From: Paracoccus sp. (in: a-proteobacteria)
GTDB lineage: Bacteria > Pseudomonadota > Alphaproteobacteria > Rhodobacterales > Rhodobacteraceae
Direction of reading: 5' to 3'
Length of the DNA: 47,564 bases
Assembly: GCA_030538705.1 (NCBI GenBank)
Contig: JAUNTL010000011.1
Coordinates: 1 to 47,564, forward strand
Shown: in pieces, positions 1,293 to 7,603 of the stretch
How the letters are laid out: each line of letters opens with the position of its first letter
Numbering within the stretch: position 1 is the first letter of the stretch
Translations under genes and position numbers: made by a program
The notes under the pieces: model-generated
Databases searched by the model: none
Seen by the model: only the letters and a program-made list of their open reading frames with translations
Told to the model about the DNA's origin: nothing

Positions 1293-1690
1293 TTGGTAAA
1301 ACCGAACTCGTGGATTGATGCGGCGATCTGCCGATCATGGCGAAGAGATCATTGTAGCCGCCATAAGTGTCGGCCTTTAGGATCCCGGTCCAGCCCGCCA
1401 GATGCTGGGCTGGATGTTCCTTTCTGCGGTCGGTGGAAAAGCAGCAGAAGGCCGCAGGGGGTAAGGCTCCTCCATCACTTGCGGCATGAACCCGTCAGCC
1501 TCCGGCGCACCAAGTATCCTGCGGCGATACTCCCGCCGCCAGATCGAAAGCGGCGACCGCGAAATCCCATACCGCCGCGCCCTGCAGGTAGCCGCGCAGG
1601 CTCGCTTCAACGATCCGCAACTTGTCATCATCCGCCCAGTGCCGACGGCGGCCGACCTCATCGGCAGCGAAAATCTCGATTGGTGAAACA
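1293..1690 (-). mobile_element. IS66-family remnant (tnpA fused to tnpC fragment, frameshifted)
   Basis: Read on the minus strand, 1683-1588 gives a TnpA (Orf1)-like start with RRRHWADDDKLRIVEA. A frameshift near 1585 leads into RRYGISRSPLSIWRREY, the helix-turn-helix part, ending near 1470. Immediately after, in yet another frame (about 1456-1300), comes CCFSTDRRKEHPAQHLAG and then LKADTYGGYNDLF, the stretch around the second catalytic aspartate of the IS66 TnpC transposase. All of tnpB and most of tnpC are missing, so the element is dead and internally deleted. It directly abuts the broken uvrB fragment, which suggests it inserted there. The family assignment is by recognition of these motifs; no terminal inverted repeats were identified. 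Confidence 0.75.
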
Positions 1691-1768
1691 ACTGAAGCGC
1701 ATGACATAAGGAAATGCCTTACGACCATTTGCACAATCAGAGCAGGCGGCCCGCACCTGAGGCTTAAC

Positions 1769-1985
1769 ATAAAACCGCGCGGTCAGTGTTTTATTCGGCG
1801 CAAGGATCAGCACTGGCCGCTTCAGGCGATGAATGAAATTCGCCATGGTGAAGGTCTTGCCGGACCCGGTTATGCCCTTGAGTGTCTGATGCGTCGCACA
1901 GGAATTGATCCCGGCAACAAGCCTTGTGATGGCTTCGGGCTGATCGCCTGCGGGGATGTTTTTGGGAATGCAGGATAAAACTGCC
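1769..1985 (-). pseudogene. uvrB: uvrB 5' fragment (excinuclease ABC subunit B, truncated)
   Basis: The minus-strand reading contains [16 protein letters not shown], then [15 protein letters not shown] (the UvrB Walker A P-loop), then [16 protein letters not shown]. This matches the first 75 or so residues of UvrB in order and spacing. The match stops abruptly at about 1769, where the IS66 remnant begins, so about 600 residues of a normal UvrB are missing. UvrB is the damage-verification helicase of nucleotide excision repair; this piece cannot function. A complete uvrB presumably exists elsewhere, since this looks like a redundant or horizontally acquired copy (inference). A uvrA scrap lies on the other side of the neighbouring gene. 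Confidence 0.8.
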
Positions 1986-2110
1986 GGCCGAGATGGAAAT
2001 ACCACCGAAATTATAGTTTCGTTGTCAGCTACGCACCTCAGGGTGCCGACAGCCCCAATAAGGCGCGCCATCTTAAACCAAAAGACCCGCCCGGGCGCGG
2101 GACCGGGAGA

Positions 2111-3639: not shown

Positions 3640-3975
3640 CGTGACCAATACCACCACCTTGCCAACCGGCGCGCATGGCAGCAGGGTGATCTGTAACGGC
3701 CCCCTGCGGGGCTGGCCGAGGTCGAGGTCCCGATCATCCGCCGCTATCTGTTCTGTGTGGCCTGGCCTGACGCCCATGAACCCCGGTCCCCCGAAAGCTG
3801 ATTTCGGCTGAGAGGCGTCACGCGCGACAACCTGCGTGATCTGGATGTAGCCTTTCCCATCGGATGTTTTGCCGCCGTGACGGGCCTGTCCGGCCCTGTC
3901 AGTCCAGCCTTGTCAGTCAGGCTTTCGGTGTCGATGCCCGGACCCCGGTCACTGATCTTTGGGGCAGCGGCTGGG
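3640..3975 (+). pseudogene. uvrA: uvrA-like fragment around the C-terminal ATPase Walker A
   Basis: From about 3715 one frame reads AEVEVPIIRRYLF, meets a TGA, then gives [19 protein letters not shown] followed by FAAVTGLSG. This is the stretch leading into the second nucleotide-binding domain of UvrA proteins. After a frameshift near 3895 the sequence continues as [12 protein letters not shown], the expected continuation of the P-loop; the GSGK core is lost at the junction. Upstream bases (3640-3714) fit UvrA only weakly. The rest of the roughly 950-residue protein is absent. Together with the uvrB fragment at 1769-1985 this suggests a former extra set of uvr genes. Positions 3476-3640 and 3976-4049 hold nothing I recognise. 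Confidence 0.7.
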
Positions 3976-4049
3976 ATGTGCGGACTTTCCGGATTCTCGT
4001 TGTGTCGCTTTGGTCTGTGAATTATCGTCTCGCTATTGAGTGAAGAAAA

Positions 4050-5060
4050 ATGTCATTGGATTGCATTTCAGATTCTGGCGAAGGCGCGGTTCCGCTTGCC
4101 CGAACCGTGATTGACGCGCGCCTTGCCGAATCCCGGCCTGATCTGCCGTGGTGGGACAGGCCGTGGATCGCTCCGCCCCTGCAAAAGGCGCTTTTCGCAG
4201 CTGGTGCGCCAGTTTACTGGCTGGCCGATCCGACGCGCTATGCGCAAACCCTCGGGGGCGGGGAACTGGACGGGCCACAGACCATGACGCTTGGCGCGGC
4301 TGCTCTGCCCGGGATCGAGGCGGCTCTGCCGCGCCTGATCGGCCCGATCAATCCTGAGAGGCCGGGCCGTGTGATCCGGCAGGCGGTGACGCAATGTCTG
4401 GGTCATCGCGTCGGTCTGTTTCTGACAGCCGAGGTCGGGCGTGACCAGCTTGCACGGCATCTTCAGCGTTTCATCTTCATGCGCGGGGCAGGGCATGACC
4501 GGCCGCTGTTCTTTCGCTTTTGGGATCCGGCCGTTGCGCTGGCATTTCTGCGCATCAATCATGACCGCCCCGAACGGATCGGCCGCTTTCTCGGTGTGCC
4601 GGGCGGGCCGGTGCTGAACCTTGTCGCCGAGACGGGGCCGGACGCGGTCGAACTGGTCCAGCCCGCCCCCGATATTCCCCGCGCACCGGCCGAACCGGAA
4701 CTGGACATGGCCGAACTGGCCGCGTTCGGGGAACTTGAGATGGATCGTTTCGTTCAGGATGCCGCGGTCTGGCTGGTTGATACCTATGGCGGGACTGCCG
4801 CATCCCGCCACGGCATCGAAGCCGCGATCCGCAACCAGATCGGGCCCTTGCGTGCCATGGGGATTGTTTCGGAATATGCGACCAATTTCGCGCTTGCCGG
4901 GCTTTATATCCTTGGCGCCCATGCGGCAAACCTACCGGCAGAGGGCCGCGCGCTGCTGACCGGGCACGAGACAGAGGATGAGCGGGCAGCCCGGTTCCTG
5001 ACCTGGGCACAGCACCGCGCGGGCCATAGAGGCAACCGGGGCAAAGGGGATACGGGATGA
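4050..5060 (+). CDS. DUF4123-like type VI secretion adaptor/chaperone
   Basis: A 336-residue protein. Residues about 50-180 resemble the DUF4123 domain: VYWLADPTRY near 55, an arginine-rich helix RDQLARHLQRFIFMR near 131-145, and the FRFWDP motif at 155-160. Residues 185-225 form a Pro/Glu-rich linker, and a helical C-terminal part follows. Family knowledge: DUF4123 proteins (Tap-1/TEC type) load effectors onto VgrG spikes and are encoded beside their cargo. Here the stop overlaps the next gene as ATGA, so the two are translationally coupled, which supports cargo specificity. No VgrG or PAAR gene is in the window. The sequence diverges from the canonical family, so the call rests on the motif and the context. 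Confidence 0.75.
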   Translation: MSLDCISDSGEGAVPLARTVIDARLAESRPDLPWWDRPWIAPPLQKALFAAGAPVYWLADPTRYAQTLGGGELDGPQTMTLGAAALPGIEAALPRLIGPINPERPGRVIRQAVTQCLGHRVGLFLTAEVGRDQLARHLQRFIFMRGAGHDRPLFFRFWDPAVALAFLRINHDRPERIGRFLGVPGGPVLNLVAETGPDAVELVQPAPDIPRAPAEPELDMAELAAFGELEMDRFVQDAAVWLVDTYGGTAASRHGIEAAIRNQIGPLRAMGIVSEYATNFALAGLYILGAHAANLPAEGRALLTGHETEDERAARFLTWAQHRAGHRGNRGKGDTG

Positions 5061-5914
5061 ACGAGCGCGCAAATCTTCCAGCCAATCCCGGCAGCGGGCG
5101 GCAGGCCGGTGAGGCCGTGGGCAAATGCGTTGGCACATTGGTCGTCAATGTCCATTGGGGCAACGATCAGGATGACAGCGCGCCCTATATGAAGGACAGC
5201 CGCATCAGGGTCGGCGGCGAGGTCGCCATCGTGTTGCAAGGCCCGGCCGAGCGGACCGAGATCGTGACCACCGGAACCCATACCTTTAAGGATCTGCCTT
5301 GCGGCACCTACCAGATCGGTGTCGCGGTCCTTCGCAATAATCCTCTGGTGGATAAGGCGCTGAAACATGTGGGCATGTCACGCTGGTCCTATGCGAACTC
5401 GATCGATTCGCTGGATGGCAAGCTGTCGCTGCCGCGCAATACCAATAAGTGTAACTTTTTCATCTATGACATGGTCCAGCAGACCTATGGTCAGGCGCCG
5501 GTCTATTCCTATGCCCGGGGGGCGAGCTGGTCGCCGATCCGCAAGACGGTTCCGGCGCTTGCCGAAAGCTGGGCCAGATCCGACAATACCGCAACCGACC
5601 CGACGCCGGGCTGGCGGAACATCGGCTATAAGTTCTCGGGTGGGACGCCGGTGCCTCCGGGCGCGATCCTTGGCATTGCCGCGCGTTATGCCGATGCCAG
5701 CGGCCATGTGGGGATCATCAGCTATCCTGATGATGTGGGCGTGGTTGCGTTGCTGGCAGGCGGGCAGGTGACCGTTCCGGTCATCATGCCCGGCAAGACG
5801 ATTTCGGCGGCGGAAGATGTCGTGCGGCACAACAACTGGGGATTCCGCACCAGCCGCAACAAGGAAACGAGCAGCCTGAACGCGCCCGCCGCCGGGGTGG
5901 AGGTTCTGAAATGA
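5057..5914 (+). CDS. Candidate T6SS effector with Cys/His (CHAP/NlpC-P60-like) amidase domain
   Basis: 285 residues with no signal peptide, as expected for a T6SS cargo. Residues 24-95 look like a small beta-sandwich (GTLVVNVHWG, then TFKDLPCGTYQIGV). Residues 105-265 resemble papain-fold peptidoglycan amidases: NKCNFFIYDMV with Cys132 as the likely nucleophile, a W-rich substrate loop, P-PGAILGI, then SGHVGII with His217, and a possible third residue near H258/N259. Family knowledge: this Cys...GHVGI pattern is found in NlpC/P60 and CHAP cell-wall hydrolases, including T6SS effectors. The gene overlaps the DUF4123 gene upstream and the exported small protein downstream, both as ATGA. It could also be a related amidase of unknown target. 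Confidence 0.65.
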   Translation: MNERANLPANPGSGRQAGEAVGKCVGTLVVNVHWGNDQDDSAPYMKDSRIRVGGEVAIVLQGPAERTEIVTTGTHTFKDLPCGTYQIGVAVLRNNPLVDKALKHVGMSRWSYANSIDSLDGKLSLPRNTNKCNFFIYDMVQQTYGQAPVYSYARGASWSPIRKTVPALAESWARSDNTATDPTPGWRNIGYKFSGGTPVPPGAILGIAARYADASGHVGIISYPDDVGVVALLAGGQVTVPVIMPGKTISAAEDVVRHNNWGFRTSRNKETSSLNAPAAGVEVLK

Positions 5915-6501
5915 AATGGCTTGCCGCCCTGCTGGCAAGCTTTGCTCTTGGTGTGACGGCAGGCGTGATCGCCGGGCCGTTCGCCACCTCACGCATGGGA
6001 GAGATCCGGACGATGGCCGACCCGATGGAATACGCAGCCTTTCGCGACAAGGCCGTTGCCGAACTGGCGACGCATGAAGACCTGATCGGTTTCGACGCTC
6101 AGGCCCCGCTTTTGCAAGAGATGCGCGCCGATCCGCGTCTGTGGGCACCGCTGCTGCGCGAGTTGATGGCGGACCAGACCGTCGCGCTCGAGGTCAAGCT
6201 GGGCGCGCTGCCGGCCATATTCGACCTGCCCGCTGCTGAGCTGGTGGATTTTTCCGACCACCTCAACACGCTGAGCCTGATGGATCCGGGACTGTTCCGG
6301 CTGGTGATGCTGGCCGTCACGAACCCGTATCGCGGGGGCGGCTTTGTGCGGCCCGGCATGGTTGCGGATATGTCCCTGCTGGACCTTGAAACCCGGGTTG
6401 ATGCGCGCAGCGTCCTGACGAGAATCGCCAGAAATCCGGCGCTGGATCAGGAAATGCTGGCTCCGGGGATGCTTATGTCTGCCTATGCGCCGGCGCGGTG
6501 A
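5911..6501 (+). CDS. Exported small protein, probable immunity protein of the upstream effector
   Basis: 196 residues. The N-terminus (MKWLAALLASFALGVTAGVI) is a basic residue followed by a hydrophobic stretch, giving a signal peptide or N-terminal anchor that would place the rest in the periplasm. The remainder is mostly helical and Leu/Ala/Asp-rich with no catalytic motif I recognise (for example LLQEMRADPRLWAPLLREL near 65-85). The start overlaps the effector stop as ATGA. A peptidoglycan-targeting T6SS effector needs a periplasmic immunity protein encoded next to it, and this gene is the only candidate. The function is inferred from position, size and export signal, not from homology. Confidence 0.55.
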   Translation: MKWLAALLASFALGVTAGVIAGPFATSRMGEIRTMADPMEYAAFRDKAVAELATHEDLIGFDAQAPLLQEMRADPRLWAPLLRELMADQTVALEVKLGALPAIFDLPAAELVDFSDHLNTLSLMDPGLFRLVMLAVTNPYRGGGFVRPGMVADMSLLDLETRVDARSVLTRIARNPALDQEMLAPGMLMSAYAPAR

Positions 6502-7123
6502 GGTCGGGTAAACCGCAGGCAACCGGTCCGCGACCATAGCATGGGCGCCGCGTATATTGTGCGAGGCTGAGGCGAGACCGGCTGATCGCCCCGCCTCATG
6601 TATCCCGCCTCTGCCGACCCGCCAAGGCATGGACAAACCGGCCGGTGCGTGTTGCACAATTGGGGTGTCATGGACGTGGCGGGGGCTGGACATTCAGGCA
6701 GAACCTTGGCTGGGCGAATGTTTGTTGCGCCGGATCGGAACCGATCAGAGCTTCCGGTGTAAAGCGGCGGTCCGGGCCGGCGGCTATCATGAATGCGGCG
6801 TTCTTTTGGGTGATCACATCCGGGCCGTGGGGCTGAGCCTGCTTGAGATGCAGCGGTTCCACCCCGATGATGGTCAGCTGCGTCATCATGCCTGCGCGGA
6901 GTGGCGGATGCTTGCTGGAAACGTCAGCGCCGAAATCCCCGTTCTGCTGGGGGCGCTTGCATCTGCGGATGAGGCGGATACGCCTCAGGGCGGGCTGCGT
7001 GTCGAGCCGCTGCAAAAGTGGGGGGGCTGGCAGGATGGCGATCTGCCCAGAGCAATTGCAGATATCTTGTTCGCCCTGCCCGAGGCGGCGGATGGTGATC
7101 CCCTATGTGACGGCGCGACCGGC
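6502..7123 (+). other. Stretch with open frame but no recognisable gene
   Basis: From 6557 the plus strand is open for 189 codons in the same frame as the DUF4123 remnant that follows. The translation (for example LLGDHIRAVGLSLLEMQRF and GLRVEPLQKWGGWQDGD) contains no domain I recognise. It may be an N-terminal part of the following broken gene, remains of a deleted upstream gene, or chance openness in GC-rich DNA. No convincing ribosome site precedes 6557. Confidence 0.4.
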
Positions 7124-7603
7124 ATGCCGCCCTTGCAGACCTTTGCTATTCTCGATGCCGCGAAATTCGGAGGAGGGGCCAGTGAAATCGAGTGTTGCGA
7201 TATGCCGTTCCGGTGACTTTTCATCGGCAAGGCCGCCCGCGAGCTGGCGGATATTGCACCCTATATCGTGCTGCTTGACCCGCGAAAGCGTTTCACGCGG
7301 CGCCTGTTCAGATATGATCCCGACCTGCCCGAACAGATGACCAGTATGCATCTTTGGCATCGCGAACCCGGCATCTATATTCGGACGCGGCTGAGCATGG
7401 ATGCGCTGTGGCGCCACTTTCGCCGCTTTATCCGTGTCGGGGAGGATCATGGCGCGTGGTTCGTGCTGCGCTTTTATGATCCGAATGTTGTGTTGGACAT
7501 GGCCAGTCATCTGTCGCAAGCTAACAAGCAGCGGTTCTTTATACCTGATATTGAGGTTATCGCCCTTCGCAAAGACGGAAGCGGTTACAAAATCAGAGGA
7601 TAA
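7124..7603 (+). pseudogene. Second DUF4123 adaptor gene, interrupted by an in-frame TGA
   Basis: From the ATG at 7124 the frame reads LQTFAILDAAKF, a typical DUF4123 opening, and runs to a TGA at 7214. Immediately after the TGA, in the same frame, comes LFIGKAARELADIAPYIVLL, then LWRHFRRFIRVGEDHG and FVLRFYDPNV, the diagnostic DUF4123 core. The stop therefore sits inside a conserved stretch and not at a gene end, so a single base change has most likely destroyed the gene. The rest ends normally with TAA at 7601-7603, one base before the next start. A short restart product from the GTG at 7268 cannot be excluded. The gene belongs to the same secretion-cargo neighbourhood as 4050-6501. Confidence 0.7.

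What the first reader, a model, noticed from the sequence alone, without database searches (positions are those of the whole stretch)
4050..6501. Orphan adaptor-effector-immunity module with a divergent Cys/His amidase
Three genes are joined by ATGA overlaps: a DUF4123-like protein, a signal-less protein with a small beta domain plus Cys132...His217 amidase-like region, and a small exported protein. This is the expected layout of T6SS cargo, but no VgrG, PAAR or Rhs gene is next to it. The amidase domain and the N-terminal beta domain do not match a named Tae family I can recall, so this could be an undescribed effector family.
Basis: partly seen in the sequence, partly recalled or inferred. 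Interest (0 to 1): 0.75.

Follow-up and report, generated by a model that had tools for sequence, protein, structure and literature searches.

The report
Adaptor, toxin and immunity gene trio
Three overlapping genes look like a loading adaptor, a cell-wall-cutting toxin for injection into rival bacteria, and its membrane-bound antidote; the toxin family is rare and unnamed, and the same trio persists intact in two related bacteria in which the tested core genes of the injection machine were not found.

Summary
Three + strand genes (4050-5060, 5057-5914, 5911-6501) overlap by ATGA and recur in the same order, overlapping, in Jannaschia pohangensis and two species of one unnamed genus. Gene 1 is a DUF4123 adaptor; gene 2 a signal-less cargo toxin (N-terminal beta-type domain, then a Cys132/His217 domain); gene 3 an exported or anchored immunity candidate. 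The window's genome has two TssC, two TssK and VgrG genes; all nine DUF4123 hits lie on contigs without a VgrG hit, so the orphan layout is ordinary there. The catalytic domain stays below Pfam's CHAP cut-off in every member scanned, but related domains end an Rhs-core ORF (weakly supported), a phage portal protein, and a stand-alone toxin whose exported neighbour resembles the immunity protein: probably a polymorphic toxin-immunity cassette. Best reading: T6SS cargo peptidoglycan amidase/endopeptidase, a rare new family of a known kind. Unexpected: in a genus where TssC was found in 0 of 7 genomes, two species keep all three genes intact under purifying selection (dN/dS about 0.2). Structure prediction never ran, so the fold is inferred from sequence only.

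The parts
4050..5060 (+). DUF4123 (Tap/Tec-type) adaptor gene, 336 aa
   Evidence: PF13503 35.7 bits over cut-off 25.8; homologues at the same place: P0004 45%, L016 and L044 copies about 34%
5057..5060 (+). ATGA stop/start overlap between adaptor and effector
   Evidence: sequence; ATGA also in L016 and L044, 8-bp overlap in L014
5057..5914 (+). cargo effector gene, 285 aa, no signal peptide
   Evidence: 64% to J. pohangensis over 278 aa by BLASTP; 52-54% to the G823 and G1182 copies
5117..5332 (+). N-terminal beta-type domain (residues 21-92), possibly transthyretin/carboxypeptidase-regulatory-like, with conserved Cys24 and Cys82
   Evidence: only weak Pfam hits, in relatives: CarboxypepD_reg E 0.046, DUF4198 0.029, DUF2141 0.082; none for the window copy; both Cys invariant in 4 of 4
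5333..5914 (+). catalytic domain, CHAP/NlpC-P60-like, residues 93-285
   Evidence: PF05257 below cut-off at the same place in 3 of 3 family members scanned; related domains in L054, L055, L056
5450..5452 (+). Cys132 codon in NKCN motif, predicted nucleophile
   Evidence: invariant in 7 of 7 aligned catalytic domains; two of the seven were found by a pattern that holds this motif
5705..5707 (+). His217 codon in DA-S/T-GH motif, predicted catalytic His
   Evidence: invariant in 7 of 7
5911..5914 (+). ATGA overlap between effector and immunity gene
   Evidence: sequence; ATGA in L016 and L044, GTGA in L014
5911..6501 (+). predicted membrane-anchored or exported periplasmic immunity protein, 196 aa
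   Evidence: hydrophobic N-terminus, mean Kyte-Doolittle 2.05 at 4-22; homologues at the same place, 29-37% identity; resembles the neighbour of the L056 toxin
6557..7603 (+). remnant of a second DUF4123 adaptor, interrupted by an in-frame TGA; a neighbour, not part of the trio; its start is not known
   Evidence: PF13503 74.3 bits at 7142-7525 with 1 TGA; pieces 6557-7216 and 7268-7603; described only

Best explanation
A T6SS cargo module for killing neighbouring bacteria. The DUF4123 protein binds the effector in the cytoplasm and docks it on a VgrG spike encoded elsewhere in the genome (inferred from the DUF4123 family). The N-terminal beta-type domain is the likely docking part (inferred). 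After injection the C-terminal Cys132/His217 domain, a divergent member of the CHAP/NlpC-P60 papain-like group, cuts peptide bonds of peptidoglycan in the victim's periplasm (inferred). The third protein, made by translational coupling and held at the producer's inner membrane facing the periplasm, blocks the enzyme in self and sister cells (inferred). Shown: gene order, overlaps, conservation in four genomes, Cys and His invariant across seven aligned catalytic domains, T6SS core genes in two of the four genomes. The catalytic domain with its immunity protein looks like a polymorphic toxin cassette that also occurs on phage-linked and, less surely, Rhs carriers.
For: Same trio, same order, overlapping genes in 4 genomes. 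DUF4123 over cut-off for the window and G823 copies. Identity between the window and the others falls from effector (52-63%) to adaptor (34-45%) and immunity (29-37%). Own genome: 2 TssC, 2 TssK, 3 VgrG hits over cut-off plus a weak fourth, 9 DUF4123; J. pohangensis (G1176): 1 TssC, 1 TssK. CHAP below cut-off in 3 of 3 family members scanned and in L056, the match starting at or one residue before the conserved Cys. HMM of the four family domains against L054, L055, L056: 0 of 1000 shuffles as high for each. hhalign of the 7-row profile with eight lysin-type domains (TIGR02594 type by eye) puts both Cys and His in register, P 0.002. The neighbour of the L056 toxin resembles the immunity family: 0 of 2000 shuffles as high by hmmsearch, 0 of 200 by hhalign.
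Against: No structure could be predicted. No family cut-off is met for the effector, and the related L054 and L055 gave no CHAP hit at E up to 1. hhalign probabilities are low (13.7% at best; 2.2% and 0.9% with the narrower profiles). With the Cys motif masked the Moraxella match drops to shuffle level (1 of 1000 as high). G823 (no TssC, no TssK) and G1182 (no TssC) keep the module. The peptidoglycan target is an inference; an NlpC/P60 toxin that cuts lipids is known (PMC12994826, passages). Two of four immunity homologues have no 19-residue window above 1.6. DUF4123 of J. pohangensis scores 24.9, just under the cut-off of 25.8.
Confidence: 0.7

Rival explanations
1. The module does not need a T6SS everywhere: in the genus of G823/G1182 another phage-derived or contractile device, or release by lysis, delivers it.
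For: TssC in 0 of 7 genomes of that genus (4 of the 7 are at least 90% complete), G823 also lacks TssK; yet all three genes are intact with dN/dS 0.21, 0.19, 0.23 (upper 95% bootstrap limits 0.30, 0.30, 0.33). A related catalytic domain ends a phage portal protein in IMG/VR.
Against: The reviews read describe DUF4123 as a T6SS loading adaptor (passages). Genomes are drafts (99% and 97% complete for the two) and a plasmid-borne T6SS could be missing; TssK was not searched in G1182, VgrG, Hcp and other core genes in neither. Window and J. pohangensis genomes do have TssC and TssK.
Confidence: 0.12
2. In the genus without detected T6SS the cassette is kept for its immunity gene, as protection against neighbours that inject this toxin.
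For: Orphan immunity proteins may protect against incoming effectors (start of the abstract of PMC10539506 in the listing); intact immunity gene under constraint.
Against: Adaptor and effector show the same constraint as the immunity gene; without use they should decay.
Confidence: 0.1
3. The Cys/His domain acts on lipids or on a protein rather than on peptidoglycan.
For: A T6SS toxin with a permuted NlpC/P60 core is a phospholipase with a membrane-associated immunity protein (PMC12994826, passages). The related Moraxella domain has a weak hit to TseH (PF25218, E 0.084), and that paper places a TseH clade in its tree of permuted NlpC/P60 proteins.
Against: Cys precedes His here, the canonical order (that permuted enzymes have the reverse order is recalled); the other weak matches are cell-wall lysins: CHAP, TIGR02594, PDB 6ist 'Lysin' E 0.91.
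Confidence: 0.15
4. A house-keeping cell-wall enzyme with a regulator, unrelated to competition.
For: CHAP/NlpC-like domains are common cell-wall enzymes (recalled).
Against: No signal peptide on the enzyme; patchy distribution (own genome only, 1 of 101 relatives and 1 of 385 class genomes); coupled DUF4123 and exported partner.
Confidence: 0.03

Closest known systems
DUF4123 (Tap/Tec) adaptor - cargo effector - immunity operons of T6SS
   Same: DUF4123 gene directly upstream of a signal-less effector, followed by an immunity candidate; overlapping genes
   Different: No VgrG hit on the same contig; effector reaches no Pfam/NCBIfam cut-off; persists in two genomes without detected TssC
Tae1-4 T6SS amidase effectors (recalled)
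   Same: Predicted Cys/His cell-wall amidase with periplasmic immunity
   Different: Extra N-terminal beta-type domain and DUF4123 adaptor; no Tae model among the hits up to E 1 (window copy) or 5 (relatives)
Tox-NLPC/P60 and other papain-like domains of polymorphic toxins (PMC3482391, passages)
   Same: Cys/His toxin domain behind different carriers
   Different: The NKCN...DA(S/T)GH signature is not named in the passages that I saw; immunity family unnamed
TIGR02594 lysin / PAAR-linked effectors (one such ORF, by eye, on contig C16 of the same genome)
   Same: Cys and His in register with the 7-row profile
   Different: 15.4 bits against a cut-off of 70.55; with the narrow profiles only the GHVG block aligns

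Membership tests
DUF4123 T6SS adaptor | Pfam PF13503 score over 25.8 | tested here: met
   window copy 35.7, G823 copy 51.2; J. pohangensis copy 24.9 falls just short; L044 copy not scanned
DUF4123 T6SS adaptor | directly linked to an effector gene | tested here: met
   4 of 4 loci
DUF4123 T6SS adaptor | linked vgrG | tested here: not met
   no VgrG hit on C75; elsewhere only by eye: none seen in the 15-21 kb listed around the module in L014, L028, L044
DUF4123 T6SS adaptor | binds effector and VgrG | not testable with these tools
   needs co-purification or two-hybrid
T6SS effector | T6SS core genes in the genome | tested here: inconclusive
   TssC and TssK present in G000 and G1176; TssC absent in G823 and G1182, TssK absent in G823
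T6SS effector | T6SS-dependent secretion | not testable with these tools
   needs a secretion assay
CHAP (PF05257) | score over 26 bits | tested here: not met
   17.8, 20.8, 23.8 in 3 of 3 family members scanned, 21.4 in L056, no hit at E up to 1 in L054 and L055
CHAP/NlpC-P60 papain-like superfamily | conserved Cys followed by conserved His | tested here: met
   7 of 7 aligned domains; L055 and L056 were found by a pattern holding the Cys motif, so only their His is independent
CHAP/NlpC-P60 papain-like superfamily | papain-like fold | not tested
   no structure prediction ran (queue full at all attempts)
Tae1-4 | match to a Tae family model | tested here: not met
   no such hit at E up to 1 (window copy) or 5 (P0005, P0007) in Pfam and NCBIfam; that Pfam holds a Tae model is recalled
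TIGR02594 | score over 70.55 | tested here: not met
   15.4 bits; no hit for P0005 and P0007
Polymorphic toxin cassette | one toxin domain behind different carrier domains | tested here: met
   PF04860 portal in L055, beta-type domain in the DUF4123 trio; TIGR03696 Rhs core in L054, whose link to the family rests mainly on the Cys motif and on L056
Polymorphic toxin cassette | immunity gene next to the toxin | tested here: inconclusive
   trio 4 of 4 (position and export only); L056 neighbour resembles the immunity family; L055 runs into the contig end; the L054 neighbour was not compared
Transthyretin/CarboxypepD_reg-like domain | Pfam score over cut-off | tested here: not met
   weak hits in relatives only, none for the window copy

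The most novel reading that the evidence does not exclude
A DUF4123-adaptor/effector/immunity trio that is kept functional by selection in bacteria with no T6SS, so that the DUF4123 loading route serves some other injection device, while the same toxin-immunity cassette moves between T6SS cargo, Rhs and phage structural proteins.
Probability: 0.12. Interest if true: 0.75.

Novelty: new member of a known kind. Interest (0 to 1): 0.45.

Why it matters
It adds a rare, unnamed effector-immunity family with a testable active site, and links T6SS cargo to phage-carried and probably Rhs-carried toxins through one catalytic domain. The trio kept under purifying selection in a genus where TssC was not found makes it directly testable whether DUF4123 adaptors always serve a T6SS.

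Tried and rejected
Profile hits L017, L018, L020, L021, L022 (E 8.7e-4 to 0.008) were read and dropped as chance (frames without the motifs); L019 (E 0.009) and L015 (E 2e-4 among candidates) were dropped without reading. PDB sequence searches gave no usable match. Plasmid and phage searches with whole effectors gave none; the G1182 domain gave none in phages at E up to 10 and one plasmid place at E 2; the Moraxella domain found only itself in plasmids and nothing in phages. IMG/VR scans with P0002, A2 and the Moraxella domain confirmed no relative; the scan with L056 returned only L056 and L055 again. hhalign with the narrow profiles aligned only the GHVG block. PHROGs gave one weak hit of unknown function for P0007 (E 0.025). 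A direct Tae reading was rejected because no Tae model appeared among the hits. The listings showed no title or abstract start that describes this family; I saw passages of PMC5471719, PMC11148199, PMC10433429, PMC3482391 and PMC12994826 and only listings of the others.
Full report
Observation. The three + strand ORFs at 4050-5060, 5057-5914 and 5911-6501 are present, joined by ATGA overlaps. The window is bases 1-47564 of contig C75 (51,304 bases) of a 3.4 Mb draft genome in 205 contigs, 86.6% complete.

Gene 1 matches Pfam DUF4123 over its cut-off, the adaptor family that loads cargo effectors on VgrG (reviews PMC5471719 and PMC10433429, passages). Gene 2 has only weak matches: CHAP E 0.0048 and TIGR02594 E 0.018. 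Gene 3 has none.

Homologues. Effector searches matched only the own genome, 1 of 101 relatives and 1 of 385 genomes of the class. A scan of genome contigs found J. pohangensis DSM 19073 (L014, 64%) and a short match, L015, dropped unread. A two-row profile over 394 family genomes gave 5 matches at E up to 0.01: own, G823 and three weak ones; over 398 phylum genomes 4: own and three weak ones. Of the six weak ones five were read and dropped, one was dropped unread. In the genus of G823, 2 of 7 genomes have the effector, G823 and G1182. Plasmid and phage searches with whole effectors and IMG/VR scans with P0002 and A2 gave none.

Synteny. All four loci have DUF4123, effector and exported protein in this order with overlapping genes. 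In J. pohangensis, G823 and G1182 the trio lies between an erpA/hesB-like gene and dgt-argS (gene names by eye). In the window it lies between DUF3422 with uvr fragments on one side and the remnant of a second DUF4123 gene on the other, so the places differ. Between the window copy and the others identity is 52-63% for the effector, 34-45% for the adaptor and 29-37% for the immunity protein; between J. pohangensis and G823 it is 80.8% for dgt and 58.5% for the effector.

T6SS in the genomes. G000: 2 TssC, 2 TssK, 4 VgrG hits (3 over cut-off), 9 DUF4123 hits. The DUF4123 contigs (C133, C16, C129, C106, C75, C95, C96) and the VgrG contigs (C57, C147, C19, C115) do not overlap, in a fragmented assembly. 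Some DUF4123 genes lie beside other cargo-like genes by eye: a LysM/amidase-type protein, a DUF2235/Tle1-type lipase, a TIGR02594-type protein. One VgrG locus has a small DUF1795-like gene and a large Rhs-like gene by eye. J. pohangensis (G1176) has TssC and TssK. G823 has neither, and TssC was found in 0 of 7 genomes of its genus, of which 4 are at least 90% complete. TssK was not searched in G1182, VgrG and Hcp in none of these 7.

Selection in the genus without TssC. Between G823 and G1182 all three genes are open. dN/dS (NG86) is 0.21 for the adaptor, 0.19 for the effector and 0.23 for the immunity gene, against 0.056 for dgt, 0.067 for argS and 0.14 for a nearby monooxygenase-like gene. 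Bootstrap 95% ranges are 0.14-0.30, 0.12-0.30 and 0.15-0.33 (200 resamples each). The effector's two domains have the same ratio. The genes were thus under constraint in these lineages. Whether a T6SS was lost recently, lies on unsampled plasmids, or is not needed cannot be told from these data.

The catalytic domain. CHAP scores below its cut-off at the same place in 3 of 3 family members scanned (E 0.0048, 5.5e-4, 6.6e-5). A plasmid search with the G1182 domain at E up to 10 gave one hit (E 2): the end of an Rhs-core ORF on a Moraxella bovis plasmid. A scan of IMG/VR for a DNA pattern of the NKCN.F.YD motif gave two loci: L055, where the domain ends a phage portal protein (PF04860, E 1.3e-19), and L056, a stand-alone protein with CHAP E 3.5e-4. 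L054 and L055 themselves had no CHAP hit at E up to 1. L056 and the Moraxella domain match at E 2e-14, 43%, L056 and L055 at 54%. In the 7-row alignment the invariant columns include N-K-C-N, D-A, G-H and an Arg near the end. An HMM of the four family members scores L054, L055 and L056 at 23.2, 39.7 and 29.0 bits, 0 of 1000 shuffles as high for each; with the Cys motif masked 5.4, 22.7 and 12.6 bits, with 1, 0 and 0 of 1000 shuffles as high. So L055 and L056 are well supported, while Moraxella rests mainly on the motif and on its match to L056. The 7-row profile against eight lysin-type domains (TIGR02594 type by eye) puts Cys and His in register (P 0.002, probability 13.7%). The third catalytic residue is not assigned.

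Immunity. The window protein has a hydrophobic stretch at 4-22 (mean 2.05) and the J. pohangensis protein at 6-24 (2.57); the other two lack a window over 1.6, but start with Arg-Arg and a hydrophobic run by eye. The gene after the L056 toxin (start 3646, signal-like N-terminus by eye) resembles the immunity family over 43 columns: hhalign P 0.0024, 0 of 2000 shuffles as high by hmmsearch (8.0 bits, E 0.22) and 0 of 200 by hhalign. This is suggestive, not proof.

N-terminal domain. Cys24 and Cys82 are invariant in 4 of 4, a possible disulphide (inference). Pfam hints at beta-sandwich families (that they are such is recalled) only weakly and not for the window copy. A transthyretin-like domain of a VgrG binds T6SS cargo (passages); that the domain here does the docking is inference.

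Judgement. Most likely a T6SS-delivered peptidoglycan-cutting effector with adaptor and immunity: a rare family that reaches no Pfam or NCBIfam cut-off, built on a toxin domain used by more than one carrier. Ordinary in kind, new as a family; the constrained copies in a genus without detected TssC are the surprising part. The fold is untested because no structure job ran.

Noticed in passing
window 6557-7603: Second DUF4123 adaptor remnant with an in-frame TGA, preceded by a stretch that by eye resembles the N-terminal part of a Tritonibacter mobilis plasmid DUF4123-type protein (L046). Described only.
   Followed up: partly
window 1658-2071 (-) and 3802-3999 (+): Fragments of uvrB (63 aa matched, E 3e-23) and uvrA (31 aa, E 1e-4) lie on either side of the DUF3422 gene upstream of the trio, suggesting a rearranged zone.
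   Followed up: partly
L014, L028, L044: In J. pohangensis and in the genus of G823/G1182 the trio sits at the same place, between an erpA/hesB-like gene and dgt (names by eye).
   Followed up: partly
L055:72-2111 (-): A phage portal protein ends in a related Cys/His toxin domain.
   Followed up: partly
L054:865-1653: Moraxella bovis plasmid Rhs-core ORF with a LysM-like stretch (below cut-off) and the toxin domain, followed by a small protein with a hydrophobic N-terminus by eye; the rest of the Rhs part lies in another frame upstream.
   Followed up: partly
G000 contigs C133, C16, C129, C95, C96: Further DUF4123 islands with other cargo-like genes by eye, one on C16 followed by a 1009-aa open frame of unknown kind.
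   Followed up: no
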